A DNA stretch of 21,135 bases, taken from the NCBI GenBank assembly GCA_009602725.1, contig WELB01000002.1, positions 1,346,069-1,367,203 on the forward strand. The letters run 5' to 3'. The notes under the pieces are model-generated. The model searched no databases and was not told the origin of the DNA. It was given only the letters and a program-made list of their open reading frames with translations. Of the stretch, positions 1 through 20,715 are shown in pieces. Position 1 is the first letter of the stretch. Each line of letters opens with the position of its first letter. The stretch comes from Spirogloea muscicola. Taxonomy: Eukaryota; Streptophyta; Zygnematophyceae; Spirogloeales; Spirogloeaceae. Position numbers and translations under genes: made by a program.

Positions 1-116
<116 letters not shown>

Positions 117-154: not shown

Positions 155-214
155 TGTGCTTACCTCTGTACTTGGCCATACTGGCCTTCGATTGTTTCAA
201 ATACACGAAATTTT
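155..214 (+). mobile_element. Type-B micro-cassette with 7-bp target duplication
   Basis: A 60-bp unit is flanked by the direct repeat CTTCGAA (148-154 and 215-221). It carries the type-B core GTGCTTRCC..GTACTTGGCC, the hairpin GGCCA-TAC-TGGCC, and the end AATACACGAAATT. The same unit occurs inverted at 4659-4713 and 11927-11986, and interrupted at 5265-5390. Flanking bases are CCCGGCCC on the left and CGGCCCCC on the right. Confidence 0.7.
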
Positions 215-631
215 CTTCGAACGGCCCCCGGGGGGGGATGGGGTCAACGGCGCGGCGCCGGGCGGCCGCTGGGCGGGGGGGTGTGGGGGGTGTGCGACCC
301 GCCGCCCGAGGCAGGCCCCATTCCGTCATCTAATACAGCTCCGCTATCATAATAGCGAAAGACCTTTCTAGCTGTCACAGATGCGCGACCATTGATAGCC
401 ACACGTGGGGAGGGAGAGAGCGCCCCGGCTTGCTGTCCTCTGCGGCAACCCGGCCGGCCCCTCCCCGCGGCCGCCGCCCACCCTCACTCCTCCTGCGGCC
501 CGCAGAGGACGCGATTTCTCAGCATGGCGTTGACCCGGCGGAGAACGCCACGGACTAGCTCTCGACTCTCGTTAACGTCGGGGCTGGCATCGGTGCCACT
601 GGCGCCTGAAGGACGTGGAAGAAAGTGTCTT

Positions 632-680
632 TCAGAAGGGGGCTGGGTAAAGCCAGCTAAACCCAAGAAAGAACATGGGA
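632..680 (-). repeat. Type-A hairpin cassette, diverged
   Basis: Read on the minus strand, this stretch has TTCTTTCTTGGGTTTAGCTGG followed by a complementary CCAGCCCCC arm and a CTTCTGAAAG end. It matches the hairpin cassette repeated many times at 4.9-12.2 kb. It lies downstream of the BCKDHB stop codon. Confidence 0.45.
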
Positions 681-1015
681 CGTGGGCGCCCAGTGGTAGT
701 TCTCGCACCACCTACAGAGTACATAAGGGCCTCTACTGATACTGGTACACAGTTAGCAAGCAAGCTGTGATCAGAGCTGCACGTTTCGTAGTGCCCAAGT
801 CAATGGCAACAGCGCAGCCTGCACTGCCTGAGGCCTGATGCCATACAGGGGAGCTTCCGGCCTGCACTTGCTTCAGCGGTGCCAAAACCTCCATGCGGCG
901 GCCTCGGCGAGCCTCCGACTCATGCTGTATGCCTCTGGCGCAGCACACTAACATGTGCAGCGCAGGGGAGAGCGGCGTGGCTAACGGCTGGCGCTGAGGC
1001 CCAAGGGCGCGCGAC

Positions 1016-4000
1016 CTAATAGCCTACGGTGGCCTTGATGGCATGAAGGACCTGCATGAAACAGCAGGGGCACAGTGAGGGACGAGACTGCAGCCGTCAC
1101 ACAGTTGGTCACACTGCGCAGGCTGTACAGCGCAGAGGAGCTTCAGATCCAATTATGTGCTGGAATTTCACATAAGCTGCGACGCAGGACCATTGGCGCC
1201 TGCTGTCCCAAAGCAACACCCGGCACTTCGAGCAAACCTTATGCTCATTGGGAAGGTAGAACGGCTCAAAAACGAGGGGGAACGGCGTGTCTGCACCACA
1301 TACTCGCGCCACCGGCGCCTCAAGCTGTCAGCCAGACAAGACCACGCCGGCATTAGCCGTGCTGCTGTAGTCACTGGAGTGCAGATCGAGAATCTCTTCT
1401 CGACTTCATAGCGCCTGGCAATGGCCGGCTTGAAAGATTGACAGATATCACTGTGCATATAAACCACCAAAAAGACGAGCTCTCTTGGGGTCCACTTCTT
1501 GCAGCTCACTCTCAGGAAGCAGCGCTCAGCGATGCTTGCTGCCACCTCTGCGCCGAAGCCTCCAGTCACAGGAGCCTCATGGCTGACCTGAGATACAGGA
1601 GGAATAACCTTAATGGCAATATAAGTAGCCTTTGCTACCGTCCTGGTAAGGGTTAGCTCAGCTGGGCTCTCCACCATGAGAAAGAGGCCACGAGTGCACT
1701 GCAATTTTCCACTATTTTGCGACCCAGCGCTCCACGCAATATCCGGACTCCCTCTGCGTCTGCCCCGCACAAGCGCTCAGCTCCTTGATGACGCCCTCAC
1801 CAGGAGGCGCCCAGTCTTGCTGACAGATTCCTCCACGGATTGCCGGTCCCATGGCAAGAGAGTGCGGAGGTCTAGCAGCTCGCAGGAGATGCCCTCCTGT
1901 GACAGGGGCGTGCAGAGAATGACTAAGTGTTTGTAGGGCATGTGCTTACCAGCACCGGCGGCAGGACCAGCACCTTTTATCGAGCACACCGACCGATGGA
2001 ACCTTGCCAATATCTCCTACCTTTGCCCCGAGCCTGCCAGCAAGCAAAGGGGAACGGCAGTAGCTGCAGGAGCACAAGGGGAGCTCACATCACTTGCTGC
2101 TGTGCACGCCCTCTCCATTGGGCCCAGCTGCGCTCCCCACCCGACCAATGTAATGTCCGTCCCCTCCCGCATGACCTGGACGAATTTGGCAGATGATCAA
2201 TCAGCATGCTTCTTGCCCGCTGCTAGTCCAACATACAATTTTGCCTCCTGATCTGTGATTGCAGGCCACATAAACGAGGGGGTGATTGCACAATGGAGGC
2301 AGAGGCCCCAGCGAAGATTCTGCAGGGAGCTACAAGTGCATGGAGCGAGAAGGGAGACCTCAGCCTGGCTGAGCGGCAGGCTGTAGTCGTCCACAGGCAC
2401 CTCCTCCACAGCCATGCGGTACAGGGACTGCAGGAGCAACATGTGCCGGAGGCGCGCCAGACTCATTGAGGTTTTCACTTCCGATGCCTTTTTATGAAAC
2501 TGGCATTCAATCGGCTTGGCCTCCCTTTCATGTCATGGCACACTGCGCCTTCTGAAAATCTGACATGTTCGACGGAATACGGCAAGAAGACACAGTGCAG
2601 AGCCTTGGCCACCGCATGCGTGGTACACTTTCTGAGACGCTCCTCTCCAGGCAGCTCGCTCACGCCCAGCCGCAGGGCTGCTGCTCTATAACATGACCCT
2701 CTCATATTGACCAACCTCGCTGGTGGTCAGGCCTGGAAATCCTGCGCTGCATCTCACGTCGGCAGCTACTCGATGGCTGCACAGTGTGAAGCCATCCTCC
2801 GATGAGGATGTCGGAGGGAAGCCGCCGCGTGGCCAGGACTCACCTTGGGCTCCAGGAAGATGACGGGGTTGGGGTCGCGAATGGACGCCAGCAGCAAGCC
2901 TTTGGCCTGCGCAGGGCTGCGCGGAACAACGACCTGCACATCAGGTAATTGCACTTGTAACCTTGAAATTGGGCTCAGAGTTAGCCTCACTATCGCTCGT
3001 TCAAGCTGCACTCGAGCCTCATATCCACATTGCTAAGGGGAGCATCGTTATGATAGCCCCTTGAGGAGCTCTCTACCAGCGCAGCACGTCCCGATGCAGA
3101 AGTGGCCCTCACCTTGATGCCTGGAACGTGGATGAAGAAGGCCTCGGGCGACTGCGAGTGGTAGTGACCACCGTGGCCAACCGCCCCATATGGTGCACGC
3201 ACCGTCAGCCCTGCGGGCGCGCGAGCGTCTCAGTCCTCCTTAGCTGTGTCTGCCAAGTGGATAGGGCGACGTCGCCAAGCGCCGAGCCCCGCCCACGCTC
3301 ACCGCCGCAATTGAATTCGCCGCCGCTGCGGTACCGGTACTTGGCCGCCTCATTGACGATCTGCAGGCGCCGCCGCAGCAGCAGCGTAGGGCACGACAGC
3401 AATTGAGGTTGGCGCAATTGCTCAATAGCCGCAGCAGAGCCACTGCCGCATTGACTGCAAGAAGCAGCGGGCCGAGTGATTGCCTCAAGGTGCAACCCCG
3501 CCGCAACGTCCTGTACGGACCTGGTCAAAGGCCGGGTGCATGTAGTCCGCAAACTGGATTTCGGCAATCGCTCGGTTGTTCTGGACGCATCAAGACGTCA
3601 AGCTGCGAGGCACGTCACGGCTTCGGTTGAGCAGCCATTGGTACATGAACAACCTTCCCGGCTAAGCTAAGAACTTCAGATTGATTGTCCTAATTAATCT
3701 CACTCCTCAGAAAACAATATCCGCTACCGATGCACAGTTCTGAGACGGTGATATGGATAACGGGAGCATGGCCAAAGCTCAGCCAGGCACGCCCATGACG
3801 ACGAGCTAGTTCGCTCACCATGGCGGCCAAGCCTATGCCAAAGCCGATGATGCCCTGCAGCAGCGACGGCAAGCGCCAGGAGGTGGTCCGTGAGCAACCG
3901 TGGCTGCTCCATTGTCATCGGCAGCAATACCAGAGGCTCGAGATTTGCCCCTCAACTGCAGCGGCGCCAGCGGAAGTCGCAAGCTGCCGGCCCAGTCCGT

Positions 4001-4417
4001 CATGCCTGCTCACAGAGGGGCGTGTTGAAGACGCGGGCGCCGCCAAAGCGCTCGGCGAGGCCGATGGTGCAGCGGAAGACGCCGCCGAAGCTCACATCCT
4101 CGCCGAACACGAACGCCCTGCAGAGCCGCGCCCGCCGCTTCCCCGAGCTCAACAATTGGGCATGGAAATGGCGGCGAGGAGCGGCGCTGAGTATCAAATC
4201 ATTTCTCTTCCTATTTAGCTTCAGCGCAAGCCAACCTGGGGTCCGAGTCGAGCGCGGTGCTCAGGGCGTCGTTGACGGCCGTGAAGAGGTTCATGCGCCG
4301 CGTCGGGGCCCTCCCCGGCTCCGCCGCCGCAGCCGCCGCCGCCGCCTCCGACGAGGCACCGCCGTGGAGGCGCCGGCCGCGCGCCGCGCAGGGCCGCCCG
4401 CCGGCGAGCGCCGCCAT
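1016..4417 (-). CDS. BCKDHB: Branched-chain 2-oxoacid dehydrogenase E1 subunit beta, 13 exons, complete
   Basis: Exons in transcript order: 4417-4236, 4117-4006, 3854-3819, 3580-3521, 3360-3303, 3210-3113, 2933-2844, 2427-2359, 2175-2089, 1896-1801, 1587-1510, 1324-1238, 1051-1016. They join in frame to 362 codons plus TAG. The ATG is the first after an in-frame stop. Residues 1-41 are Arg/Ala-rich, including eight Ala, and look like a mitochondrial presequence. The mature start is [11 protein letters not shown]. Family signatures are [11 protein letters not shown] (about 65-75), [47 protein letters not shown] (about 161-175), [23 protein letters not shown] and [14 protein letters not shown]. 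With E1-alpha it forms the thiamine-diphosphate E1 that decarboxylates 2-oxo acids from Val, Leu and Ile in the mitochondrial matrix. The length fits plant and animal orthologues. All donors are GT except exon 2 (GC). Repeats begin within about 250 bp upstream of the start codon. Confidence 0.96.
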
Positions 4418-4514
4418 GGCGCCCCCGGCTCGCGGCTAGGCGAGGAGAAGCTGGCCTGCAGTGGGAGATGTATAAGGAAAGGGAAGAACAGAAGAATGCA
4501 GCTTCTCAATTGAA
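4418..4514 (-). promoter_or_regulatory. Short BCKDHB 5' flank
   Basis: This is the only non-repeat sequence between the BCKDHB start codon and the retroelement island. It must hold at least part of the 5' UTR or core promoter. No clear TATA box or initiator motif is visible, so the call rests on position alone. Confidence 0.35.
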
Positions 4515-4830
4515 TGAGTGGCTGTCAAAGCCAGCGAGGTGAATACAGAGGGTGTTCATGACGATGTGGAGTGTATAGTGGGTGATGGATGTAGCCCGAA
4601 TACGGGATGTATACGAGCAAGAGAGAAGGCGCGCGGTGCGCGATGAAATGAAAAGGAGAATCCGTGTATTTGAAACAAACGAAGGCCAAATGGCCAAGTA
4701 CAAAGGCAAGCACAAAAGGAGGCCAATTTAAAGTGGCGTGTACGCTGTTCAGGCAAGAAGAGCTGGTGCAGAGAGTGGGGCTACACAAAGCGGAGCCCTA
4801 TGCCAGGGTGGCTGAGGTGACAGGGTGACG
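4515..4830 (-). mobile_element. Retroelement 3' UTR fragment near the BCKDHB start
   Basis: Read on the minus strand, the segment shares TGTCACCT..AG.CACC, GCCTGAACA, AATTGGCCTCC and CGCGCGCCTTC with the 3' UTR below the copy that ends at 6868. It is interrupted by a type-B cassette (4659-4713). No coding part of the element is recognisable here. It lies in the upstream region of BCKDHB, so it may contribute regulatory sequence. Confidence 0.55.
4659..4713 (-). mobile_element. Type-B micro-cassette with 8-bp target duplication
   Basis: A 55-bp unit is flanked by AAAAGGAG at 4651-4658 and 4714-4721. Uninterrupted versions of the target can be read at 6765-6790 (GAAATGAAAGGGAGGCCAAT) and, in the opposite orientation, at 5322-5345. 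This makes it a clean insertion. It contains the hairpin GGCCA-AA-TGGCC. Confidence 0.8.
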
Positions 4831-4929
4831 CGGACCGCCCAGGGGCGCGGAGGCTGCGACGAGAAAGTGGCTCTCGCAAGGGGCCTAAGTGATTATCCTA
4901 CCGGTGTATGGTTACTGTGTAATTTAGAG

Positions 4930-5062
4930 GAAAGGGCTCGCCCATTGAGGATAAGCCAGCCCAAAAATGAATAAACAAAGTACGAGAAAAAAACAAAGGC
5001 GCCTTCCGGCCCTTTGTTTTTGGGGTGGCTTTGCCAGCCCCTCTTCTCTATGGGCTCGTCCA
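4930..5062. repeat. Inverted pair of type-A hairpin cassettes
   Basis: A minus-strand cassette (about 4933-4975) and a plus-strand cassette (about 5015-5062) face each other. Each holds the GGGCTGGC / GCCAGCCC hairpin or a close variant, and the ATGGGCGAGCCC or ATGGGCTCGTCC tail. Between them is an A-rich stretch and a short GC-rich arm. The pair could fold into a long hairpin if transcribed. Confidence 0.65.
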
Positions 5063-5147
5063 GAAAGCTGGACGAGCTCTAGTTGGTGGTAGAAGGGCTT
5101 CGTATCTGACATCTAGTATTCAGGCATCGATTAGCGACCTTTATGTT

Positions 5148-5199
5148 CTTTTTGGGCTGGCTTTTCCAGCCCCTATCCTCAATGAGCGAGCCCTTCTCT
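5148..5199 (+). mobile_element. Type-A micro-cassette with 9-bp target duplication
   Basis: A 52-bp unit is flanked by CTTTATGTT at 5139-5147 and 5200-5208. It contains the near-palindrome GGGCTGGCTTTTCCAGCCCC and ends GCCCTTCTCT. The pre-insertion sequence reads S-D-L-Y-V-L-T-R-G-Y-stop, the same C-terminus as other copies, so the empty site is independently predicted by the reading frame. Confidence 0.85.
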
Positions 5200-5308
5200 C
5201 TTTATGTTTTGACCCGTGGTTACTGAGCGGGTCAATCTGCTGTAGGTTATGTAGGTCTTTAGGTGTGCTTGCCTATGTACTTGGCCATTTGGCCTTCGTT
5301 TGTTTCAA

Positions 5309-5364
5309 TGTAATGGCTTGAATTGGCCTCGCTTTGATTTCATGCGCACCGCGCGCCTTCTCTC
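5309..5364 (+). mobile_element. Type-C micro-cassette inside a type-B unit
   Basis: A 56-bp unit lies between TTCAA direct repeats (5304-5308 and 5365-5369). The host type-B unit is uninterrupted at 155-214, 4659-4713 and 11927-11986 (GTTTCAAATACACG or variants). The insert carries AATTGGCCTC, the self-complementary GCGC-ACC-GCGC, and the end CCTTCTCTC. Related sequence is in the 3' UTRs at 4620-4740 and 6725-6800 on the minus strand. Confidence 0.7.
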
Positions 5365-5403
5365 TTCAAATACACGAAATTCTCTTCTCTATGGGCGGGC
5401 ACT

Positions 5404-5572
5404 TCAGAAGAAAGGGCTCGCCCATAAGAAGAGGGGCTGGCAAAGCCAGCCCAAAAAGAATGGACAATGTCCAAAGCCAAAGAAAGAGATGCCGAAGAAG
5501 GACTACTCTACCAAACACAACATCACACTAGGGAAGCTCAATACCCACGAGTAAGCAACAGCAGGTCAGAAT
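5404..5572 (-). pseudogene. Retroelement copy b: C-terminal end and 3' UTR
   Basis: On the minus strand S-D-L-L-L-L-T-R-G-Y ends with TGA at 5540-5538. About 70 nt of UTR follow, then GGACATTGTCCATTC and a type-A hairpin cassette (about 5470-5404) ending GGGCGAGCCCTTTCTTCT. It shows the usual order in the family: stop, short UTR, hairpin, CT-rich end. The body 5' of S-D-L is missing or too decayed to recognise. Confidence 0.65.
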
Positions 5573-5574
5573 AG

Positions 5575-5889
5575 CTCGATGCGGGGAAGGAGGCGCTCCG
5601 CCGAGACCCGGAGGCGGCGGCCAGAGCGCTTCTCTCTTTGGACCTTGTCCATTCTTTCTGGCCTGGCTATCTACAGCCCCTTGCCTCCGATCGTTCCTTC
5701 AGGTCAACGCTCTTCTGCCCTTTTCCGACTATCCATGGCCCACGCCTTGCACCTGCGTTCTAGCCGCGTTCTCGTACTTTGTTCATTCCATTTTGGGCTG
5801 GCTTTTTCCCAGTCCTTGCCCCCATTGGGCGAGCCACTTCTCTCTTTTCCCAGCCCCTATCCTCAATGGGCGAGCCCTTCTCTCTCTCA
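5575..5889 (+). repeat. Cassette cluster and coding scrap
   Basis: The stretch holds a type-A cassette at about 5638-5690 (GGACCTTGTCCATTC then CTGGCCTGGC), a retroelement coding scrap at about 5726-5775 (M-A-H-A-L-H-L-R-S-S-R), and two partial type-A cassettes at about 5790-5842 and 5845-5885. The open frame across it is a by-product of these repeats, not a gene. Confidence 0.55.
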
Positions 5890-6236
5890 CTCTCTAGAGC
5901 CTTCAACGCCGCTGGCTCGTGGGCGCAAGTCTACCGTATGAGATTGTCTGTATCCCTTCAGCGGTCCATGGCCCACGCTCTGCATCTGCGTGCTGGCCGT
6001 GCTCTCGCTGCGGCCTCCGGCTTTCGTCGGGGGATAGTTTTCCAGCAGCTAGTTTGTCGGATCTGAGGCTCCTCACTCGTAACTATTGAGTGATCCATCC
6101 TCCCCCTGTTCTGACATAGCATCTTCCGACCCCTTTGTAGCTGCTCCACGTTTGTAGGCCCCTCCGAACCTTTTTCAATTCTTTTTGGGCTGGCTTTTCG
6201 CAGCCCTTGCCCCCATTGGGAGTGCCACTTCTTCTC
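5890..6236 (+). pseudogene. Retroelement copy c: frameshifted C-terminus plus full 3' UTR
   Basis: The copy encodes Y-R-M-R-L-S-V-S-L-Q-R-S-M-A-H-A-L-H-L, then loses one base near 6032 relative to copies d and g, which throws the frame to an early stop. In the shifted frame the family ending S-L-S-D-L-R-L-L-T-R-N-Y is still readable to about 6088. The UTR runs through a type-A cassette (about 6180-6236) ending CCACTTCTTCTCT. It is a close inverted match of 9520-9205, and a direct match of 11992-12195 in its 3' part. Confidence 0.8.
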
Positions 6237-6485
6237 TAGCTGCAGCCTCTGGCTTTCGTCAGGGGGATTGCTTTCCCTTTTTTGTACCATGGGGAGCAGG
6301 CGGATGCCCATGAAGAAAGGGCTCGGGATTGCTTTCCGGCTGCTAGTCTTTCAAATCGGCGGCTCCTCACTCGTGGTTACTAAGAGATCCATCCTACCCA
6401 AGCTCTGAGACAGCGCTTTTGGCCCCTTGGAACCTTGTCAATTTTCTTCGGGCTGGCTGGCAGTTCTTCTCACAGCCCTTGCTGA
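6237..6485 (+). pseudogene. Retroelement copy d, split by a micro-insertion
   Basis: A-A-S-G-F-R-Q-G-D-C-F-P is followed by a 48-bp insert and its target repeat, then A-A-S-L-S-N-R-R-L-L-T-R-G-Y with TAA at 6381-6383. The downstream UTR matches copies c, g and h in a diverged form and ends in a degenerate type-A cassette (about 6440-6485). It abuts copy c directly. Confidence 0.7.
6277..6324. mobile_element. 48-bp insert with 13-bp target duplication
   Basis: GGGATTGCTTTCC is repeated at 6264-6276 and 6325-6337 around a 48-bp insert. The insert holds a CATGGG / CCCATG stem with a 13-nt loop and an edge AGAAAGGGCTC that matches the minus-strand tail of type-A cassettes. Deleting insert plus one repeat restores the retroelement frame. 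Confidence 0.75.
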
Positions 6486-6533
6486 CTAGAGGGTTATAGA
6501 GCGCCAACTTGCCGACGTCTTGGAGACTAGTAC

Positions 6534-6553
6534 TTGGGAGTGCCACTTCTTCT
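6534..6553 (+). mobile_element. 20-bp insert with 7-bp target duplication
   Basis: CTAGTAC at 6527-6533 and 6554-6560 flanks 20 bases matching only the last part of the type-A cassette of copies c and g (GGGAGTGCCACTTCTTCT). This looks like an extremely 5'-truncated cassette. The short repeat length leaves some chance of coincidence, but the matching insert makes that less likely. Confidence 0.55.
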
Positions 6554-6654
6554 CTAGTACAGCGCTTCTTGGCCCCTCGGACAAGAATGAGCTGGCTGGC
6601 AGTGGAATAATTTGACAAGGAATGGAAGTTGACAAGGCCCAAAAGTAATGAACC

Positions 6655-7530
6655 TATAGAGCCAGCCCAAGATGAACGACGAGGTACACAACAGCGAGTG
6701 GAAGAGAAATAGCTCTTCAAATGAAAGCATGTGAAGGCGAGGGGGGAAGGCGCGCGGGGCGCATGAAATGAAAGGGAGGCCAATTCAAGCCAGTACATTG
6801 TTCAGGCGAAGGCTACGGCAGACTAAACAAGGCTAAATATACCTAAAGTAAGGTGCCTAAGGTGACATCAATACCCACGGGTGAGCACAAACAAATCTGA
6901 CAAGCTAACTTGGGCAGCTGGAGCGCCGCCACGAAAGCCGGAGGCCTGACTTAGAGCGCGCCCGGCACGTTGATGAAGAGCCAATGCTTGCGAGCGCTGC
7001 AAACTAAGCGAGAGCCGCATTCTGTAATGTACAACTAAGGCCTGCGGAATGCTGGAGTGGCCCAAGCTGCCCCCCCGACTTCGACGACGCGCATCAACCA
7101 GCCGGGCCAGATGCTGGATCAGGGTGGACCATTTCACGCCGCAGCCTCCGTAGATATCCATGGCACACGGGTAAAGATGGTCCCCTCGAGGATGATCATA
7201 GTAGTGCCGCTCCTTCTTGCGCTCCGCGCTGGACGTGGCCCAACCAGACACGGTTGACGTGGGTGCGCCAGCCTTGCATGCGTCAATCAGGACCACGTCC
7301 AGGAGCAAACGAGGCCCACCGCCCCGGGGGGTGGCGACCACGTCCAGGCGCCGCACGTAGGGCTTGCCGCGCCTTGAGGAGATGGGCATGATACCAGACA
7401 CTTGCAGCGCCGGGTGGTACCCCGCCTCGCGCACAATTCCAAACATAGCATCCCTCAGTAAGTCGTGCGAGGCGATGCGCTCACCCCCCTCAAAGGGAAA
7501 GAGATGCAAATGTTCTGCATATTAGCCTCT
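6655..7530 (-). pseudogene. Retroelement copy e: longest coding remnant (nuclease-like C-terminal domain)
   Basis: On the minus strand about 220 codons stay open from about 7530 (after an upstream in-frame stop) to TGA at 6870-6868. There is no convincing start, so it is a 5'-truncated copy. Counting from the TTG at 7509, visible features are a G-E-R-I-A-S-H-D-L-L motif (9-18), R-R-L-D-V-V (53-58), L-L-L-D-V-V-L-I-D (68-76), A-E-R-K-K-E-R-H-Y-Y-D-H-P (95-107) and Y-P-C-A-M-D-I-Y-G-G-C-G (113-124). The D...D...K spacing recalls the putative PD-(D/E)XK-like tail of reverse-transcriptase ORFs in green algae; that is recall, not a search. The last 50 residues match copies c, d, g and h. The 3' UTR continues to about 6655 and includes a type-C unit. 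No reverse-transcriptase motif is in the window. Confidence 0.6.
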
Positions 7531-7639
7531 ACACTCTTAAGACGTCACACTTTCGTGGGGGGCGCCTGTCGCTTTCTGGAGGCGACTTGCTCGGGCCACC
7601 TGGGCACAAAGAGTGGTTTCGTGCTTTTAGGAAGCTCTT

Positions 7640-7845
7640 CCAAGTCAAGAAAGCGCGGCCAGATTGACTAGTGGCTGGGAGAGTCCAGCCCAAAGGAATG
7701 GACAAGGTCTGAAGGAGCCGGAGTGTGAAGGACTAGGACCAGTACTCTTTGGTCTGGCTTCTCACAGAGAAAGCGCGGCCGCGCGTAAGTCAAGGTAGTG
7801 GCTGGGAAAGGCCAGCCCAAGAATGGACAAGGTCCAAAGAGCCAA
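7640..7845 (-). repeat. Duplicated type-A cassette segment
   Basis: Two direct copies (about 7640-7720 and 7766-7845) share AGAAAGCGCGGCC, TAGTGGCTGGGA, CCAGCCCAA and AATGGACAAGGTC. Each carries a minus-strand type-A hairpin. The second is the 3' end of copy f, and the first may be a tandem duplicate. The sequence between 7531 and 7640 shows no recognisable feature. Confidence 0.6.
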
Positions 7846-8023
7846 AAGGCTCCTGAACCACACAGCTGTGCACAAGACTACAGCGGAGGGGAATGGAGTG
7901 TATATTAAGAGATGAAGGGCCTGTGTGGCCGAGTACAAAGGCAAGCACATAGACAAACGTGCATCACCTGCTGCTAAGCTGACCCGCTCAGTAACCACGA
8001 GTCAGCACATAGAGGTCGCTAAC
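7797..8023 (-). pseudogene. Retroelement copy f, 3' half (interrupted by solo LTR)
   Basis: On the minus strand V-S-D-L-Y-V-L-T-R-G-Y ends with TGA at 7990-7988. The UTR includes a diverged type-B unit (about 7915-7955, GGCC-ACACA-GGCC hairpin) and ends in a type-A cassette near 7797. Its upstream codons continue at 8725-8760 on the far side of the LTR, in frame once the LTR and one CTAAC are removed. Confidence 0.75.
8019..8023. repeat. Target-site duplication, left
   Basis: CTAAC directly precedes the LTR and is repeated at 8720-8724 directly after it. The 5-bp length is typical of LTR-retrotransposon integrases. Confidence 0.85.
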
Positions 8024-8719
8024 TGTAACGATTTTACATGGCTGGAATGTCAATGCAGCAGTAATGTATTGACAGATGCCTGGAGACTAGACACCTCATC
8101 CGGCTGATAAGTAAATTGACTGTCAGTGCCGCAGGAAAGGCTTGACAGATGCCTGGAGACGGACACTTCACCAGGCTGGGAAGCGTGAATTCAACCTAGA
8201 GCTGAGAGCGGCGCAACCCGAAGTCGTGACGCGCGAGACAGCATGATGCTGGCGCTGGAACGGCGACGGGAGGCGGCAGCGCTGTAGACTGCCTTGACGG
8301 CGTTGTTAGCCGTATGTTGACGGGAACGTAGACGGCGCACGATAGCCTGGGGTTAGTGACCGTCAGCTGCTAGTGACGGGGAGGACCGTTAGTATGTCAG
8401 TGGTTGCTGATGGATGGGTAGATTGTCGGTGGTAGCCCGTTGATAGCCGTCGACAGATCGTGGACGGGTCGTGAACGCTAGACTGGGTGCCAGTTATCCC
8501 ACCCGGGCCCTTGTGGCCGGGCTCGCAGTCTGTTGGGCTATATAGGGGGCACCCGAGATGGGAGAGGGGGTGAGTTCTTCACCCAACCTCAGACCCCTGG
8601 ACCCTTGCTCCTGCAGTATCCGTTGCTCAATTTTACCGTTGCAGCCCCATTCTAATGCCTCCCCGCTTTTCCTTGCGCCGCCGGCAGCCCGGGCTTGGCA
8701 ATCCACAGCATTCGTTACA
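8024..8719 (+). mobile_element. Solo LTR, 696 bp
   Basis: The unit starts TGTAACG and ends CGTTACA, a 7-bp inverted terminus with TG...CA ends, and is flanked by 5-bp CTAAC duplications. A TATA-like TATATAG lies at 8539-8545, consistent with a promoter in plus orientation. Two 19-bp direct repeats (TTGACAGATGCCTGGAGAC, 8069-8087 and 8142-8160, period 73) lie near the left end. No gag, pol or second LTR is present, so recombination between two LTRs probably removed the interior. It is younger than the retroelement copy it splits. Confidence 0.9.
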
Positions 8720-8760
8720 CTAACTGATACCCGGATACTGGACCGCAGTCGACAAGCTTT
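8720..8760 (-). pseudogene. Retroelement copy f, upstream remnant
   Basis: After the right-hand CTAAC, the minus strand reads S-S-I-R-V-S and continues across the LTR into V-S-D-L-Y-V. The coding signal fades beyond about 8760. Confidence 0.55.
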
Positions 8761-9150
8761 GGTGCTACCAGCTAAGGCTCAACCAGCTTTCTGGTGCAAC
8801 AATGATGGAGGGGAGCTTAGTAACCCCGAAGAGCCTGGAAGGGCACACTTCCTCTCACAGCCATTGCCTTACAGTGGAGGAGCTGTTCTGGCCATTCGTT
8901 GGGGTCTTGGAGACAAGTGTCCTGCTTTTTGCGCCATCCGGCCCTTTCAGACCCTGTCCATTCATCTTTGGGCTGGCCTCTCACAGCCATTGCTGTCAAT
9001 ATCAAGAGCTTCTCTCTTTCCTTCGGAAGAGCTCACTTCTCACAACCATTGCCTTATATAAGGAGCTGTTCCTCCCTGCCGCGGCCGCCTGTCGCCACAG
9101 TTGCAGGTGAGTTATCAGTGCACCAGCTGACTTACAGGACATCTGCAGGC
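8761..9150. other. Repeat mosaic without a gene
   Basis: Contains a plus-strand type-A cassette (about 8955-9000, GGGCTGGCCTCTCACAGCC) and two direct copies of a 40-bp segment (about 8848-8887 and 9029-9066) sharing CACTTC..CTCACARCCATTGCC and GGAGCTGTTC. Open frames across it are made of repeats. No gene is supported. Confidence 0.5.
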
Positions 9151-9154
9151 GGAC

Positions 9155-9191
9155 CCCAAGGGGCCAGCTCGTTTGAGCTCGGCCCCTTGGG
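9155..9191. repeat. Strong hairpin
   Basis: CCCAAGGGGCC (9155-9165) pairs perfectly with GGCCCCTTGGG (9181-9191). Inside, AGCTC (9166-9170) pairs with GAGCT (9175-9179) around the loop GTTT, with one bulged base (9180). The total stem is 16 bp. A run of C follows. It lies just beyond the 3' end of copy g. Confidence 0.85.
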
Positions 9192-9204
9192 CCTCCCCCC
9201 CCCG

Positions 9205-9520
9205 AAAAGAGAAAGAAGTGGCACTCCCAATTGGGGCAAGGGCTGCGAAAAGCCAGCCCAAAAAGAATTCACCAAGGTTCAGAGGGGCCTAAGAGCGGTG
9301 AGCAGCTACAAAGGGGCCTGAGGATGCAATGGTAAAACAGGGGGAGGATGGATCACTCAATAAGTACGAGTGAGGAGCCTCAGATCCGACAGACTAGCTG
9401 CCGTGAAGCTATCACCCTGACGAAAGCCAGAGCCCGCAGCGAGAGCACGGCCAGCTCGCAGATGCAGAGCGTGGGCCATGGACCGCTGCAGGGATACAGA
9501 GAGGCGCATCCGATANATAC
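9205..9520 (-). pseudogene. Retroelement copy g: C-terminus and 3' UTR, intact frame
   Basis: On the minus strand the frame runs Y-R-M-R-L-S-V-S-L-Q-R-S-M, then G-F-R-Q-G-D-S-F, S-L-S-D-L-R-L-L-T-R-T-Y and TGA at 9359-9357. It keeps the base lost in copy c. The UTR and type-A cassette (about 9268-9210) match copy c closely, making an inverted repeat with 5890-6236. The 5' break is next to the only N in the window (9516). Confidence 0.8.
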
Positions 9521-10205
9521 TATAAGTACCAGCCCTTGCTGGTTGGGTCAGATGGTGTACATGATAGCCACCCGAGTTTCAATTTGCAAACCGAATGAAA
9601 TTGTCGGTCGCATTTGCCAGGCTGACAAGGCAGTCTGACGAGGCCAATATTGGCGAATGTCTCGTCTTGTTGATTACAGCACCGTCATTAAAGATAAAAA
9701 CTGGCCCGACTTTGAAATTGTGGTTTCATCTTGGCCTACAAATGCACGTTGAATAGCCAGTGCTAGAGCAGAAGCTACCCAGGGAGGTTCCAAAGAGGAG
9801 CCTAGAGTTGTTGTGGATACTACAGCAAGATTAATAGCAGACTGTCAGTAAAAACTGTTGGACAGGATGTACACGAAGCATGTCCTGAGCCTCAAAGCTC
9901 TAGGGTGGTCAAGTGAACGACCAACCAGCATGCTCCAGAGTAGCATTGCCGTTAGAAAGAATCAAGAGTGTGTAGGTTGCGGCTGATCCTGCTCTAGCAT
10001 CTGCCAAGCTGAATGTGAGTCCTATTTGCTCTGGTGTTGCACCTCGCAGGCCATTTGAGGAAATACAGAGACAATATATTCTGTTACGATTCTTGCCCAC
10101 ACCTCAGGCATACCGCGGCTTGGAAACATGAGGCCGAAACTACTTTTGCTGGACACTGGTGCACCCAGTGCTCCTGGGCCGGAATTTGACTCCGGACGAT
10201 CTACC
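9521..10205. other. No recognisable feature
   Basis: Lower-GC sequence with no convincing coding frame, repeat copy, tRNA or hairpin on either strand. The open frames are short and unlike the codon use of the spliced genes. Confidence 0.4.
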
Positions 10206-10207
10206 TG

Positions 10208-10735
10208 TTGGTAATGATCCCCAGCGCTGTAAAGAACGTCTACAGGATAAAGAACGACTACCAGCAGCACGAGACTTTCCAGGACAGGAAAAATATGTCG
10301 AAGGTGTTGAACTACGTAGCAGTACATGAGGGAGGGCACGGTCAGGGACGTCAAGAAGTTCCCGTTCGAGAATTTGCCCACAAGAGCCCCCTTCATAGCA
10401 ATTCACGGCAACATTGTGGCTAGCAAGGGGGGCGTGAAGGTGTCCTCGATCACCAACCTGCTCCCGGCATACATGGAGGCCAGCACGCCGGCCAGTTCAA
10501 CTTGGAGGACGAGACCACGCACAAGGAGTGGGAGACGTACTACTGGGCGGAAGTGGTGCAGCAAGCGCGCGCAGAACTGCATCGAGCCGGGGTTCCACGA
10601 GGACTACTGCGAGACCTCGAAAAGTGACAAGCACTTGTTGCACATCTTTGGCGAAGCTCATAAAGGACGCCATCAAGCCTCCACACAACTCGGCGGTGAT
10701 GAAGTTGTACAAGGGCTTGATCGCGTCGTTTAGAA
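10208..10735 (+). pseudogene. Decayed gene fragment, unknown family
   Basis: A coding signal switches frame at least twice: K-N-V-Y-R-I-K-N-D-Y (about 10228-10260), then V-K-K-F-P-F-E-N-L-P-T-R-A-P-F-I-A-I-H-G and V-S-S-I-T-N-L-L-P-A-Y (to about 10475), then a one-base loss, then Q-F-N-L-E-D-E and H-K-E-W-E-T-Y-Y-W, and finally L-I-K-D-A-I-K-P-P-H. GC-rich third positions suggest real ancestral coding. The middle part loosely recalls an OB-fold segment of RPA-type proteins, which I hold only weakly. Its last third is duplicated, inverted, at 10944-10738. Confidence 0.4.
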
Positions 10736-10737
10736 GC

Positions 10738-11087
10738 TACGTCATTTCGTCAGACATGTGCAACAAGTACTTGTCGGTCTTCGAGTTCTTGTAGTACTCC
10801 TTGTGGAAGCCCGGCTCGTAGGCAGTATTGTTGGGGTTCTGCGTGCGCTTGACCACTTCCGTCCAGTAGTACTTGTCCCACTCCTTGTGCATGTTCTGTA
10901 TCGTGTCCTCCAAGTTGAACTGTCCCGCATGCTGGGCCTCCATGTTACAGCAGTGACAAGTTGGCTCAGTGTCAAGATCTACTCCTGCTGAAGCAGTATC
11001 ACCTTCACGATCCAGATTGACAATACTGCCCGACCTCAATCTCAAGTAACAGTGGACGAGAAAGTAGGTCAAAGATCCAAACAACAA
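10738..11087 (-). pseudogene. Inverted relative of the 10.2-10.7 kb fragment
   Basis: On the minus strand M-E-A-Q-H-A-G-Q-F-N-L-E-D (from 10944), H-K-E-W-D-K-Y-Y-W-T-E-V-V, E-P-G-F-H-K-E-Y-Y and K-Y-L-L-H-M stay open to TAG at 10740-10738. This portion is clearly homologous to the plus-strand fragment at about 10468-10660 but keeps bases that copy has lost. The portion above 10944 is not recognisable. No start codon, splice context or known domain was identified. Confidence 0.4.
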
Positions 11088-11767
11088 TTGATCTGGAATA
11101 CTTCAAGCATTTGATTCCACAAGCAACAGTCACGCTAGCAGTCTTAGGCGAAGTTTCAAGCAACGGTACAAGAAGCAGTCCAATGCAACAACAATCAAGC
11201 TTGAGAGTCCACTTCGCAAGCAAAGAAGTGTGTAAGTGGCTAGTGAATGCAATTGTTCCGAGTACCCAAGTCAATGAAGCTTTCTGAAAGAGAACCGCTG
11301 TCTAAATGACCTGAACAAGGCTGATGGCTCGAGACAAGCAAACAAGCAGATCCTGACAGATGCAGTACACTCGAACACAGTGACAATGCTATGCGTGTAG
11401 CCGCAAGCGCACAAAAATATCAAAGTTCAGACCGCAACCTTAGCTGAGAAGATGTGTGTAATGACAGGCGATGACAGGACTATATGCAAGTCTGCTCACC
11501 GCGAGTCCTCCGAGACTCTCGCAGCCGTGCGCGGGGCCAGCTTAGATTCACTAGCTGCTGCGTGCCTTCTGCCCCAGGCTCGACGCTCTCAAGGCGCGGG
11601 CGCGGGCGCAGGCGCGGGCGTGCGGAGGGACGCGCAAGAGGGTGAAGCTGGCGAAGCCGGCATGCTTGGCAGGAGCCGCTCGCCCCCGGCTTGGGCCGCT
11701 CACGGTCACTGCAGCCATGGCCGTCAATCTGGATCAGCTGTTTCGTTTAAGCTGGTGGGCCGGTTCT
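11088..11767. other. No gene seen; short GC microsatellite
   Basis: Lower-GC sequence to about 11500, then GC-rich sequence with a GCGGGC-type microsatellite at about 11593-11622. A long frame starting at 11452 runs through the microsatellite and downstream cassettes and has no protein-like features. I treat it as chance. Confidence 0.4.
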
Positions 11768-11926
11768 CCCTTTTGGGCTGTGGCCTCTCAGCGCTTTTCG
11801 GCTCGTCAATCTTCCGGCCCCTTCAATCCTATTCTTTTCGGCAGTTCTTGTCGGCTCCTCTTTCTTTGGCTTGGGATATTGTCCATTCTTTTTGGGCTGT
11901 TTTGCCAGCCACTCTTCTATGTGATA
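11768..11926 (+). repeat. Type-A cassettes, diverged
   Basis: Two plus-strand cassette relatives: TTTTGGGCTGTGGCCTCTCAGC at about 11768-11790, and TGTCCATTCTTTTTGGGCTG with a CCAGCC arm at about 11880-11918, ending ACTCTTCT. The second runs directly into the coding end of copy h. Confidence 0.5.
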
Positions 11927-11986
11927 AAAGATCGTGTATTAGAAAGAAATGTAGGCCAAATGGCCAGGTACAAAGGCAAGCACAAA
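11927..11986 (-). mobile_element. Type-B micro-cassette with 8-bp target duplication
   Basis: A 60-bp minus-strand type-B unit lies between ATGTGATA at 11919-11926 and 11987-11994. It holds the GGCCA-AA-TGGCC hairpin. Removing it leaves the sequence running straight into G-D-S-F-P-A-A-S of copy h. Confidence 0.75.
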
Positions 11987-11991
11987 ATGTG

Positions 11992-12195
11992 ATAGCTTCC
12001 CAGCAGCTAGTCTGTCGGATCTGAGGCTCCTCACTCGTACGTACTGAGTGATCTATCCTCCCCCTGTTTTACCATAGCATCCTCAGGCCCCTTTGTAGCT
12101 GCTCACCGCTCTTAGGCCCCTCTGCACCTTTGTGAATTCTTTTTGGGCTGGCTTTTCGCAGCCCTTGCCCCCATGAGTGCCACTTCTTCTATTCG
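11992..12195 (+). pseudogene. Retroelement copy h: last 18 codons and 3' UTR
   Basis: D-S-F-P-A-A-S-L-S-D-L-R-L-L-T-R-T-Y ends with TGA at 12045-12047. About 90 nt of UTR follow, then a type-A cassette (12137-12192). The match to copies c and g is close along the whole length. The 5' part is absent. Confidence 0.75.
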
Positions 12196-12214: not shown

Positions 12215-12506
12215 TCTCAGGGCCCATGCACACCGGGACGGATGGACGCCGCCGCGGGGTACGTGTCACGCGGTGTATGGAGCGTCTGGGGTCAAAGTCT
12301 TGCCAAGTAGAGGCTAAATCGAGGTCAATTTGCGTCCGTCCGTCCCGGTGTAAAATTGGCTCTCAGGGCCCATGCACACCAGGGACGGACGGCCGCGCCG
12401 AGAGGTACGTGTCGCGCGGCGTATGGAGCGCTTTGGATCCAAGCATTTCCAATTCGGGGCCAACTCGAGGCCAATTGCGTCCGTCCGTCCCTTCGTGTGA
12501 ATCGGT
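12215..12506. mobile_element. Tandem pair of miniature TIR elements
   Basis: Two direct units of 146 bp begin TCTCAGGG at 12215 and 12361. Each contains a small element with near-perfect terminal inverted repeats. Element 1 (12230-12351, 122 bp) has 20-bp arms matching 19 of 20, starting ACACCGGGACGG. Element 2 (12376-12498, 123 bp) has ACACCAGGGACGG against the complement of GTCCCTTCGTGT. They look like MITEs, but no target duplication is evident and the superfamily is unknown. They end about 100 bp before the first TRAPPC11 coding sequence. Confidence 0.75.
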
Positions 12507-12609
12507 CCTCAGACTGCGGCCGTTAAATCGGAGCGCTCCGGCAATCGGCAACGAAACGGGCGGCGGAGGCGGCTGCCGTCACCGTTACCTACGGCGGGGC
12601 TGCAAGTGA

Positions 12610-15600
12610 CCGTTCCCCTCCCTTCAAAAGCCACCGCCGCGCCGGCCCCGTGGCCGCTCGGCGGCGGCGGCGGCGGCTGCGGCGCTGCCGCCGGCGGGCA
12701 TCCTGCCGGCGGACTGGCTGGCCAAGAAGCGGGCGCGCAGCCCGGCGGTGCTGGCGCTGCTGCTGCCCCGCGACCGCATCTTCTACAGCGACGCCACGCT
12801 CTGGGCCGCAGTCTGCTCCCAAGTCGACTCCGTCAAGTGAGCCCCCGCCGCCGCCGCCGCCGCTGCCACCGCCGCCGCCGACGCCGCCGCAGCCGTGACC
12901 ATGCGTTTGCAGCGGCAGCCTCCGCCTCCTCCCCGCCATCAGGCGTGTCATGGCGACACGACTGATAGCGCGCGGCGCTCCCCCGCTGCTTCTCGCGGGG
13001 CGGCGGGCAGGCAGCTGCTCCTTGGGCGCAACACCCGGATGATTGTGCTCATGACGCAGGCCACGCTGGCCGGTGAGCGTGGCTGGCTCGCACACCGCCG
13101 CAATCGTTGTGGACGTGTAGTCGCTCCTGAGCCAGCGGCCTTGAGGTGGACACGCTGCCGACGAGCTTGTGGTTGGCGCCGGCTGTGCGGTGATGGCAGC
13201 TGAGCATTGCAGCGGTCCAGCGAGCATCTGACGGCTTCGCGTGTGCGCCTGGCAGGGGAGGTGAACGAGGACAGGTTGTCGGCGCTGCGCAAGCGCGCGG
13301 AGGTGGAGGCCCGAGCCTGCCTGCAGTTCGTGACCGATGACCCCGGCGAGCTCAAGCGATCGCTGGCCAGGTCCGCCTGCCCGCCAACGCCTCCTGCAGG
13401 TGGCACAACTGGCGGTTGCGAGCGTGTGAGCCAGTCCCTGGCTGGCCAGAGGCAGCCGTAGTGGCGGCTTCATGACGGAGCTTGCTTGCTCACTCACCAC
13501 CACTTGTTCTCAAATTTTCAATGAGCACTTGCAAACAGGTTTGCAGCTGCGGCTGCCGAGAATGCCAGCCAGTTCTACCGCGACGAGGCCAAGCGCCTCA
13601 AGGGCCGCATGGACCGGAGAGCGCACCTCCATCCTGACCTCGCTGTGCGCTACAACTTCAAGGTCGCTCGTTCACATTCACAAGCATTTGAGCATCAAGG
13701 CCCTCTATGAAATACTTCAATTGTCTATATGTTCAGTCTGCAAGCATGCCAGCACTCGCCCTGCTGGTGCCGCTTGACTTTCTTGGTTCATGTAGAGCGC
13801 CAACACTGTGTTATCCCTGAGGAACAGTAGATTGACTTTGGTCATGCTTTGCAAGGCTTTAGGCTGCAGATCCTGATTGCATCCAGCTTTCGCTCATGAC
13901 GTGGATGTAAAGGTAGATTAGGATAAGATGAGGCAAAGTGCCAAATTCATGTTTGCTAGACTACTCGTGGGGCATACACGCCAAGCTGAGACATTTAAGT
14001 GGTCCCTTGTCATGTGGTAGCTTGCTTGCAGGCTGCCGTGCTTGTGGAGTTCTTGCGTGACTGGGTGTCTGCTTTGAAGAATTATGAGTTTGCCTACTCG
14101 ATCCTGCTGGAGGTATGGAAGGCAACTTCTGGCAGTCTCTGCATTGTAACATAGCCAACAGTTGATCAGATCACTTGTTGGGGGCAAGTACGTTGCAGCA
14201 TCTCAGCCTACATCAGAAACACCGAATGGATGAGATTCAAGCTTTGTGTTGTATGCAATTCTTGCAGTGTCGTGCACAGTCGCCTGATGATATGATGATT
14301 GCGAGATGCAGAGTCTGAAGGCCGGACCGGCGCCACTGCCGGTGCAGAGGATGGTGGAGGTGCGGGCGGTGGCCGGGCAGCTCCACTTCAAGATCTGCAC
14401 GCTGCTCCTGCACTCCTCGAGGGAGGCTGAGGCTGTGCGGCGCCAGCGAGCACATGTGGCGTACTTCCGGGCCCGCATTGGCCCCCCTGACGGCTCCTTC
14501 CTCCACTGGGCCTGGCTGTCCAATCAGTACAAGGTTTTTGCGGAGCTCGTTCAGCAGCGACTTGCTTCGGGCCTGCCTCCGCTGCCGGTGGCCAGTGGGC
14601 CTGCTGGCACTGCTGTCACGGACAGAGAGCTGCAGCCCGCTTACTACTACCAGGTACTGAGTGTCCCATTCTAGCCTGTTTCGATCTTCTTAGGCATTGG
14701 TGAGTGTCTGTATTGCAATGTCATGTGAGATGTGACAGAGCACCGCTTTTGCATGCTTCTGCAGAAGCACCATCTCTACTTTTAAAGTGATGAAAACAGT
14801 AGCCAACAGAAGCGCTCTACTTTACTTCCAATGGCACCTATGCAAGACAGGGCAGTTGGTGCCCTTCTTTCAAGGTTGCTTCTTATGTCGTTGCTTGAAA
14901 CTCGGGTCAGCTGATGATTTCTGAATTCCGCGACCAGATGGCAGGCCAGTATGCAACTCAGAAACAGAGGAGCTTTGAGGCCGAGCTGGCAACCTCGGAG
15001 GCCTTTGGCCTAATTGACACAGAGGACGTGCTATCAGGCAGCAGCGAAGCACTTGCTCCCCCCGTTTACGTGGGGCAGTCCTCTCGGCTGGTCAACAGGG
15101 GGCCGAAGCTCGAAATGCAGAGGTTTGTGTTGCGATTGATTCTCTCGCGTAGTAAAACTTCCTATGTAGCTGTTACAGGTTCTCTGTCAGACCTTTAACA
15201 AAGACAGTGCATGTTCAGATGGGCCTGCTGTCGGAGTTTGACTTCAAGTACAGGCATCCAGGGCTTGATTGAGTTCAAGCCTGACCTTTGACGCAATTTA
15301 AAATCTATCATGGGTCGCACCTTGCATCAGGGCGTCGGAGGCGGAGTTTGTGCGCCACGCGCTCCTGGTGGAGCGCCTGGTGTCGCCCCCTCATGCTACA
15401 GCACTTGCGCTACTTACGCGCGCCCATGAGGAGTATCGGAAGGCCGGGCATGCCAGCCGGGCCATCTTCGCACTGGGCACCGTGATGGCCCGCCTGTACT
15501 GGCAGGCCAGGGACTTTGCGAGCTGTCGCCGGCTCCTGGACTCAGTGGCGAGCGTATACCGGCGTGAAGCGTGGGCTGCCCTCTTGGCGGCCAGCTTGCA

Positions 15601-18746: not shown

Positions 18747-20715
18747 TCAGTGGGTCTTATTGCTGGCCGGAGAGGGAGCCTCTGGGCCTTGTCCCACAGG
18801 ACTAGGTGCAGCGGCAGGGTTGCCGTGTCCGGCTGGAGCTGGAGCTGGAGCTGCGGCTGGATGAGAGTGTGTGAGAGCAGGACCATTGAACGTCGGCACT
18901 TGGGCAGCAACTGGAGCGGGTGTAGGTGGAGGTGGGGGTGAAGGCGGGCTCGGGGACGGAGTTGGAGGAGCAACATAAGTGGGCCGTGGCGCTGGCGCAA
19001 GATATGGGGGAGGCACTGGCAATGGTGGGGGAAGGGGCGGAGGCGTAATACTGGGACTAGGAGCAGGTGTTGGAGGAATGGGAGTGGGCTGCCAGCCTGT
19101 GGGTGCCGCAGCGGGGCTGATCGACGCCAGCGGCGCCCCTTGGTAACAACTGTCCGAATGGCGGGCTGTGTGGAATGCCACGCATCGCCGGTTCTGGGGG
19201 AAGTCCTCGTTGTGAGCTCCGGGGTTTATGATGACGCCGCTAGTCAGCTGGGCCTCCGTGATCTGTAGGATGATGAGCTGCCCCAAGAAGCGCCCAGCCT
19301 GGCATGAACGGGAGAGTTTGAGCAATTTTCCATTGCCTGATTATTGCTCGAGTACTATTCATGGGATCGTGACGCGATGACCAGACGTGCCCAGAGATAA
19401 GTATCACAGGTACATGCTTTTATGAAGCTATAGGATCCCAATTGGAAACTAGGATCCCAATGCGGGCAGTATGCTTACTTGTTGTGAGTTCCGCGATGCA
19501 ACGAGATTATTGGCGACGTAGAAGATGTCATAGCATGACTCGCTTGTGTTGTAAGCAAACGCACATTGGCTGCACCCGTCGCAACTTGCAGCATTTTCCG
19601 CTGAGCAGTTGGTCTGGTTCACAGAGGGCGACGCCAGCCTGGAGTTACTGTGGTGAAATCACGTTACTCGGGAACAAGATATGGCAGACCACCCAAGTAA
19701 TGAGCAGGACTTTCAGTTTGGATCAAGCCCTGCCGCATACATGTCCTTATGCAGATGACAGGGAAGCTTCACAGAGGCCCTCTCTGGCCCCCCACAACTT
19801 ACGGGAAAGCAGCTGTTAGCCGCAGGCTGTGTGTTTTGGCATGAGGAAGACGAAGAGTATTGAGATCCGCAGGTATGCGAGCAGCAGCAACAGGTCTTGG
19901 TAGCAGCATCAAAGTCACAACCAGGGTTGCTAGCCGAGCTGGCCATGCTGGCAGGCGTAGCACGGCAGCACCCTTCTGGAGCTTGATTCGTTGTGCAGTA
20001 GCTCCTGGCGTGGCTCAGAGAGCAGCAGTCCCCGTTGGTGTTGACTGCAACGACGTCATAGCCTTGCCTGCACGAGGAAGGAGGCAACCCCAGTGTCAAA
20101 GCTGAGCCTGCCTGACAAACTTCGCCACGCCGAGATGCTCAGAATCACTGCAGCCTCTCGTAAAAGGACGGAGCTACAGCAGCGCTTGTTTGCTCGAGAA
20201 TGCTGAACAATCAACTTGCGTCAATCTTTGACCAATCTGCAAGCGACCACTGTATGCACAGGCCGACGAAGTCATGCGTATGACGCTGTGTGCTGACTTT
20301 TACATCAAAACCCAACAAGACGACAGATGGGTAGCTCGCAAAAAATGCACGAGACTACAGTTGCAAACAGATCAGCCGGTGGTCAGTGCGTGGCCAATCA
20401 GATATTTCCATCGGAAAATAACCTGGTGGTCAGGGGGCTGCCGTAAGTGTGGTCTCCAGGCGAGCAGTCGAGGGGTATCTGCGGGAGGCGGTCCCGGTGG
20501 CCCTCCATGTAGAAGTCGCACCACTCCAGAGGCGACGGCTGGTGCCGGCAGCCGGCGCATCGGAGGAGGCAGTTGGAGCCTGACGAGCAGACGCTCGTTG
20601 GAGAGCCTGGTACTGCGGCTGGTGCACCATTCCCATGAGCCGTGGCCGCTAGACGCAACGTCAAGACGATCGCCAGGAGGTGTGCGATGATGGTGAAGCG
20701 GATCGGCGGCGCCAT
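18747..20715 (-). CDS. Secreted Cys-rich protein with Pro-rich tail, 4 exons
   Basis: Exons in transcript order: 20715-20423, 20067-19803, 19613-19479, 19298-18747 (414 codons plus TGA). Residues 1-28 (MAPPIRF, then a run of hydrophobic residues ending A-T-A-H-G) form a signal peptide. Residues 30-231 are Cys-rich with paired or clustered Cys (G-D-C-C-S-L, E-G-C-C-R, K-T-C-C-C-C-S, S-C-D-G-C-S-Q-C). Residues 232-291 carry F-L-G-Q-L-I-I-L-Q-I and two more Cys. The tail from about 292 is rich in Pro, Ala, Ser and Thr (PTPSPSPPSPPPPP), like hydroxyproline-rich wall glycoproteins. I do not recognise the Cys-rich domain; the overall plan resembles pherophorin-type matrix proteins but the motifs differ. 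The exon 3 acceptor at 19613/19614 was chosen because it alone keeps the Cys-rich frame; the nearer CAG leads to a stop. Confidence 0.8.

What the first reader, a model, noticed from the sequence alone, without database searches (positions are those of the whole stretch)
155..11986. A family of 52-60 bp hairpin micro-cassettes that insert with target duplications
Five insertions of nearly constant size (52, 55, 56, 60, 60 bp) are each bounded by direct repeats: 155-214 (7 bp), 4659-4713 (8 bp), 5148-5199 (9 bp), 5309-5364 (5 bp), 11927-11986 (8 bp). They fall into three unrelated sequence types: A (GGGCTGGC stem), B (GGCCA stem) and C (GCGC stem). Yet each has a short hairpin, and the type-A, type-C and best-preserved type-B copies end in a CT-rich TTCTCT-like tail. 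Empty sites are visible for 4659 and 5309, and the frame predicts the one for 5148. Variable duplication length suggests target-primed reverse transcription rather than a cut-and-paste transposase. The constant size is odd for random 5' truncation. They may be miniature SINE-like units moved by the local retroelement. Short palindromic repeats are known from algal organelle genomes; I do not know of a nuclear family like this.
Basis: partly seen in the sequence, partly recalled or inferred. Interest (0 to 1): 0.9.

Follow-up and report, generated by a model that had tools for sequence, protein, structure and literature searches.

The report
Broken-off tail ends of LINE retrotransposons
The tiny hairpin inserts are the last few dozen letters of ordinary copy-and-paste jumping genes in a green-lineage genome, left behind when copying stopped early, and not a new kind of miniature mobile cassette.

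Summary
The five insertions are real, at the stated coordinates, with exact direct repeats of 7, 8, 9, 5 and 8 bp. The reading as a fixed-size family of hairpin micro-cassettes fails. Types A, B and C are the extreme 3' ends of several related LINE families. In longer copies each tail follows the C-terminal codons of one homologous protein ("...SDLxxLTRGY*"-like). One copy elsewhere in the genome has an open frame of 1267 aa: zinc finger, reverse transcriptase, zinc knuckle and restriction-like-endonuclease motifs. Copies are 5'-truncated at very many points. In 78 type-B copies anchored only on 21 nt near the 3' end, the 5' extent runs from 0 to beyond the fetched flank (300-430 nt), with no significant peak at 52-60 bp (4 seen, 2.4 expected). 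One copy with a 9-bp duplication is 24 nt long and lacks the hairpin. New member of a known kind; the co-resident LINE families with separate tails are the mildly interesting remainder.

The parts
155..214 (+). type-B (subfamily TTCGATTG) LINE 3'-end copy, 60 bp, 7-bp TSD CTTCGAA
4623..4740 (-). type-C 3'-end copy (sense on - strand), interrupted by the B copy 4659-4713; outer limit near 4740 set by eye
4659..4713 (-). type-B 3'-end copy, 55 bp, TSD AAAAGGAG, inside the C copy
5060..5382 (+). longer type-B copy (end of reading frame + 3' UTR), itself hit by an A3-type and a C-type insertion; limits set by eye
5148..5199 (+). A3-type 3'-end copy, 52 bp, TSD CTTTATGTT, inside the B reading frame
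5309..5364 (+). type-C 3'-end copy, 56 bp, TSD TTCAA, inside the B tail
5410..5580 (-). type-A2 copy: end of reading frame (...YSDLLLLTRGY*, stop at 5538) and 3' UTR with GGGCTGGC hairpin tail; upstream limit set by eye
5932..6233 (+). type-A1 copy: C-terminal coding remnant (stop codon ends at 6089) and 3' UTR tail 6179-6231
6746..7521 (-). type-C long copy: endonuclease-region reading frame 6868-7521 ending ...SLSDLFVLTRGY*, then 3' UTR ending in the type-C tail
7898..8020 (-). type-B2 copy (GGCCACACAGGCC hairpin): ...VSDLYVLTRGY* (stop at 7988) and 3' UTR; upstream limit set by eye
9215..9515 (-). type-A1 copy with coding remnant and 3' UTR
11927..11986 (-). type-B 3'-end copy, 60 bp, TSD ATGTGATA
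11995..12190 (+). type-A1 copy with 3' UTR

Best explanation
The micro-cassettes are 5'-truncated ('dead on arrival') copies of at least six related LINE (non-LTR retrotransposon) families, told apart by their 3' UTRs, probably of the restriction-like-endonuclease (RLE) kind. The element protein nicks the target, primes reverse transcription at the 3' end of its own RNA and often stops or is cut short after a few dozen to a few hundred nucleotides. Second-strand joining then leaves a short 3' fragment between target duplications of variable length. Shown by sequence: homologous protein C-terminus in front of each tail type, fixed 3' end, variable 5' end, target duplications, empty sites, and an open 1267-aa frame with RT. 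Inferred: the enzymatic steps, and any role of the hairpin in RNA recognition.
For: Of 20 loci picked only by an exact 27-mer of the B tail, 18 continue upstream into one coding sequence (aligned 144 to 646 nt) and 2 (L024, L026) end within the 3' UTR; they part from each other at different points. Extents in 61 such copies run from 28 nt to beyond the fetched flank; in 78 copies anchored on 21 nt near the 3' end, from 0 up. C (23 copies) and A2 (22 copies) are also spread. Insert lengths defined by repeats of >=9 bp alone: 24 to 664 nt in 17 of 110 copies, null rate 3.1%. Tails A1, A2, A3, A4, B, B2 and C each follow '(S/A)DLxxLTRGY*'-like codons. Open 1267-aa frame: RVT_1 E 1e-18, zf-C2HC_2 E 4e-4. 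K-x2-[KH]-Y in 9 of 9 aligned proteins and D-x14-D in 8 of the 9. 9 of the 150 scored protein matches have a 1267-aa open frame, which suggests recent activity.
Against: The zinc-knuckle spacing (C-x1-C-x11/12-H-x3-C, 6 of the 6 proteins that cover it) differs from the published CX2-3CX7-8HX4C. Repeats of at least 7 bp are found in only 13/51 B, 10/32 A1, 5/20 A2 and 3/20 C copies; for A1 the excess nearly vanishes at >=8 bp (3/32 vs 5.4%), and for C it is slight at >=5 bp (7/20 vs 27.6%). Decay and short duplications could account for this, but that is not shown. There is a mild, non-significant excess of inserts of about 45-60 nt (8 vs 4.3 expected, P 0.07).
Confidence: 0.94

Rival explanations
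1. A genuine non-autonomous SINE-like family: a discrete ~55-nt RNA made of the LINE tail hairpin is transcribed on its own and moved in trans by the LINE.
For: Several short B copies begin at or next to the same bases (TGTGCTTGCC); slight excess of 45-60 nt inserts, P 0.07.
Against: No significant size peak; each tail type named here also occurs in longer copies continuous with the protein frame; an insert shorter than and lacking the hairpin exists (L107); no Rfam family matches the window at gathering score.
Confidence: 0.04
2. Miniature inverted-repeat DNA transposons (cut-and-paste) with a short hairpin.
For: Small size, internal hairpin, target duplications.
Against: Duplications vary from 5 to 16 bp; one end fixed and the other end variable; continuity with an RT-encoding element.
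Confidence: 0.01
3. Filler or templated DNA captured at double-strand breaks from abundant LINE RNA or DNA.
For: Many copies lack a clear duplication.
Against: Conserved 3' terminus and a duplication that starts beside it in the same orientation are what TPRT gives, not break filling. I did not search for inserts from internal or 5' parts.
Confidence: 0.01

Closest known systems
RLE-encoding LINEs (R2, R4, CRE, NeSL/Utopia, HERO clades)
   Same: One open frame with N-terminal zinc finger, RT, CCHC-type knuckle and RLE with a K-x2-K-Y-like motif (domain order as described in passages of PMC5678591 and PMC4640811); 5'-truncated copies.
   Different: Copies examined here are dispersed and not site-specific (different flanks and duplications); knuckle spacing unlike the published one; clade not placed because no RT reference set was at hand.
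Dualen LINEs of Chlamydomonas and its relatives
   Same: RLE-bearing LINEs of green algae (passages of PMC8226300, and PMC4640811).
   Different: Dualen encodes both APE and RLE; Pfam found only RVT_1 and zf-C2HC_2 in the 1267-aa frame at E<=1.
5'-truncated R2 copies of Drosophila
   Same: Truncated 5' ends with variable 5' junctions (passages of PMC2718515).
   Different: R2 sits in 28S genes; here the inserts are dispersed and one reaches down to 24 nt.

Membership tests
RLE-encoding LINE | reverse transcriptase of retroelement type | tested here: met
   RVT_1 E 1e-18, residues 554-752 of the 1267-aa frame
RLE-encoding LINE | single frame with N-terminal zinc finger | tested here: met
   zf-C2HC_2 E 4e-4, residues 244-267, below Pfam's curated cut-off; one 1267-aa frame
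RLE-encoding LINE | CCHC knuckle between RT and endonuclease, spacing CX2-3CX7-8HX4C | tested here: inconclusive
   C-x1-C-x11/12-H-x3-C in all 6 proteins that cover it; residues present, spacing different (published spacing read)
RLE-encoding LINE | RLE catalytic pattern D...D with distant K in KX2KY | tested here: met
   D-x14-D in 8 of the 9 aligned proteins (the ninth is too short at that end); K-x2-[KH]-Y in 9 of 9, exact K-x2-K-Y in 4. Motif only, no null; no profile support, fold not run
RLE-encoding LINE | fixed 3' end, 5' truncation, target duplications | tested here: met
   duplications strong for B, weak for A1 and C
RLE-encoding LINE | site-specific insertion (usual in CRE, R2, R4, NeSL; HERO contains many non-specific families) | tested here: not met
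   different duplications in the copies examined; only a tendency to begin with C or T. Not a defining feature for HERO (passages)
HERO / NeSL / R2 clade | position in an RT tree | not tested
   no reference RT set available
SINE | discrete size and own small-RNA-derived promoter head | tested here: not met
   no significant size peak; no Rfam match in the window. Pol III boxes were not searched for separately
MITE | two fixed ends with terminal inverted repeats, constant duplication length | tested here: not met
   variable 5' end and duplications of 5-16 bp

The most novel reading that the evidence does not exclude
A so far undescribed green-lineage clade of APE-less RLE LINEs with relaxed target choice and an unusual zinc-knuckle spacing. 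It has split into at least six co-resident families that share a protein C-terminus but each evolved its own 3' tail, and it completes integrations with cDNAs as short as about 24 nt that lack the hairpin, so very many sub-60-bp scars go unannotated.
Probability: 0.3. Interest if true: 0.45.

Novelty: new member of a known kind. Interest (0 to 1): 0.27.

Why it matters
It removes a claimed new class of mobile micro-cassette and replaces it with a measured truncation series. The residue is useful: several related LINEs with different tails in one genome offer a natural comparison of 3'-tail recognition and of how short a target-primed reverse transcription product can be and still integrate. 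It also suggests that repeat annotation with length cut-offs would miss many tiny LINE scars.

Tried and rejected
Searched the window against Rfam (no match at gathering score) and the endonuclease region against solved structures (no match at E<=10). Weighed a separate SINE-like unit, MITEs and break filler (see rivals). Host identity: no RuBisCO large subunit found in the assembly; 68 chlorophyll-binding matches; one such protein matches solved chloroplast chlorophyll a-b binding proteins, the best being a chain named LHCI-2. That chlorophyll a/b proteins mark the green lineage is recalled; the species is unknown. Literature searches: (no paper); the listings show, by title and abstract start, no report of APE-less RLE LINEs in green algae, which is weak evidence. 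Papers: passages of PMC4640811, PMC5678591, PMC8226300 and PMC2718515, and section 5 of PMC4640811; the others only in listings.

Sampling limits: the 78-copy set mixes loci chosen by the 27-mer up to contig C12 with 27-mer-negative places up to C14, so it slightly over-weights the latter. All samples use exact anchors and favour young copies; the C and A2 anchors include the hairpin, so shorter copies of those cannot appear. In one search, 19 of 70 B, 4 of 24 C and 2 of 34 A1 copies were left out because the 5' end was not reached or the flank held N; copies of the window itself are among those counted. The 9 aligned proteins are a choice from 72 tblastn matches. L122 was cut to 72 bases. Tail families A1-A4, B, B2 and C were told apart by eye.
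Full report
Observation. The window is G000:C2:1346069-1367203, from a 153-Mb assembly of 471 contigs. All five reported insertions are exact: 155-214, 4659-4713, 5148-5199, 5309-5364 and 11927-11986 sit between perfect repeats of 7, 8, 9, 5 and 8 bp. The tails are very abundant: with at most two mismatches B 1100, C 2211, A1 3607 and A2 3746 places, all reversed controls 0.

What they are. Twenty 10-kb loci were taken only because they hold the exact 27-mer of the B tail, and read upstream. In 18 of the 20 the sequence continues through a common 3' UTR into a reading frame ending like '...ALHQKAGRALVGGRRASYLTSSIQASISDLYVLTRGY*' (aligned lengths 144 to 646 nt); L024 and L026 end within the 3' UTR (84 and 66 nt). 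The copies leave the common sequence at different points. A motif scan finds a homologous protein C-terminus in front of each tail type, the tail ending about 100-170 nt after the stop codon: B, B2, C, A1, A2, A3 and A4. The A, B and C types are therefore 3' ends of related families. In the window itself the type-C tail at 6746-6790 belongs to the frame 6868-7521 on the minus strand.

The protein. One copy elsewhere (L069) has an open 1267-aa frame with a reverse transcriptase (RVT_1, E 1e-18) and an N-terminal C2HC finger (E 4e-4, below Pfam's cut-off). Of 12 solved sequences matched weakly (E<=0.1), the best are group II intron or retron-type reverse transcriptases (from E 3e-4), followed by R2 (from 7e-4) and LINE-1 ORF2 (from 0.0035). 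Nine related C-terminal regions, chosen from 72 tblastn matches, align. All 9 have K-x2-[KH]-Y, 8 have D-x14-D, and all 6 that reach far enough have a Cys-Cys-His-Cys knuckle. This fits the published description of LINE restriction-like endonucleases, including the first K and the Y of KX2KY (PMC5678591, passages). The knuckle spacing does not fit the published one, the motifs were sought after seeing the alignment, and a profile of the region finds no solved structure, so the endonuclease assignment is probable rather than shown.

Size. In 61 B copies with the exact 27-mer (recounted), the length up to the end of the 27-mer runs 28, 33, 33, 36, 42, 53, 59 ... to 467, where the read flank ends. 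To avoid demanding the hairpin, I anchored on 21 nt near the 3' end only (1147 places with at most one mismatch) and measured 78 copies: 5' extents 0, 3, 6, 13, 17 ... to beyond the fetched flank. Taking insert length as extent + 25, there were 4 copies at 52-60 bp where 2.4 are expected from the local density (P 0.22) and 8 at 45-60 bp against 4.3 (P 0.07); the densest 9-nt and 16-nt windows are matched by 30% and 15% of simulations. Twenty-three C and 22 A2 copies, anchored on sequence that includes their hairpins, are also spread (extents 12 to at least 320 and 3 to at least 275). Insert lengths taken only from repeats of at least 9 bp are 24, 53, 71, 78, 80, 82, 92, 95, 95, 149, 164, 223, 399, 412, 432, 454 and 664 nt (17 of 110 copies; null rate 3.1%, so three or four may be chance). 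The 24-nt insert in L107 has the duplication CTTCCGACG and no hairpin. I infer that the constant size seen in the window comes from choosing short copies.

Target duplications. Against pairs of flanks from different copies, B copies have repeats of at least 9 bp in 8 of 51 (null 0.1%) and at least 7 bp in 13 of 51 (null 2.7%).

Nested insertions. The B copy at about 5060-5382 was hit by an A3-type copy in its reading frame and by a C copy in its tail; uninterrupted counterparts are found at 57 and 115 places in the loci held. A B copy sits inside a C copy at 4659-4713; type-C sequence uninterrupted at that site is found at 30 places.

Hairpin. Stems such as GGCC..GGCC and GGGCTG..CAGCCC are seen across families with different loops (by eye), but single-sequence folding is not exceptional (z -0.62 to -2.40 for five tails). 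A role in recognition by the element protein is plausible from other LINEs (recalled) and untested here.

Host and activity. 68 chlorophyll-binding matches, one of them compared with solved chlorophyll a-b binding proteins, place the host in the green lineage. Of 150 scored protein matches, 9 have a 1267-aa open frame and 25 share the identical score 453.8, so some families look young.

Verdict. What remains of interest is the set of co-resident LINE families with different tails and the very short integration products.

Noticed in passing
window 12230-12351 and 12381-12492: Two adjacent related units with terminal inverted repeats (20 nt 95% and 16 nt 94% complementary, 82 and 80 nt between arms), MITE-like, just upstream of a TRAPPC11-like gene.
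   Followed up: partly
window about 12600-18270 (+): TRAPPC11-like gene: Foie-gras_1 matches in frames 14291-14674 (E 1.6e-20) and 15302-15781 (E 3e-12); gene limits by eye.
   Followed up: partly
window 10480-10935: Long imperfect inverted duplication: arms 10480-10510/10905-10935, 10512-10562/10847-10897, 10583-10655/10746-10818.
   Followed up: no
window 1-112: Run of over 100 A at the window start, possibly an assembly feature.
   Followed up: no
window 18747-19340 (-): Proline-rich reading frame near cysteine-rich frames at 19713-20138 and 20398-20892; no Pfam match at E<=0.01.
   Followed up: no
window 2516-2537: 22-nt stretch 95% like part of the type-C tail within the gene-bearing part (E 1e-5).
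   Followed up: no
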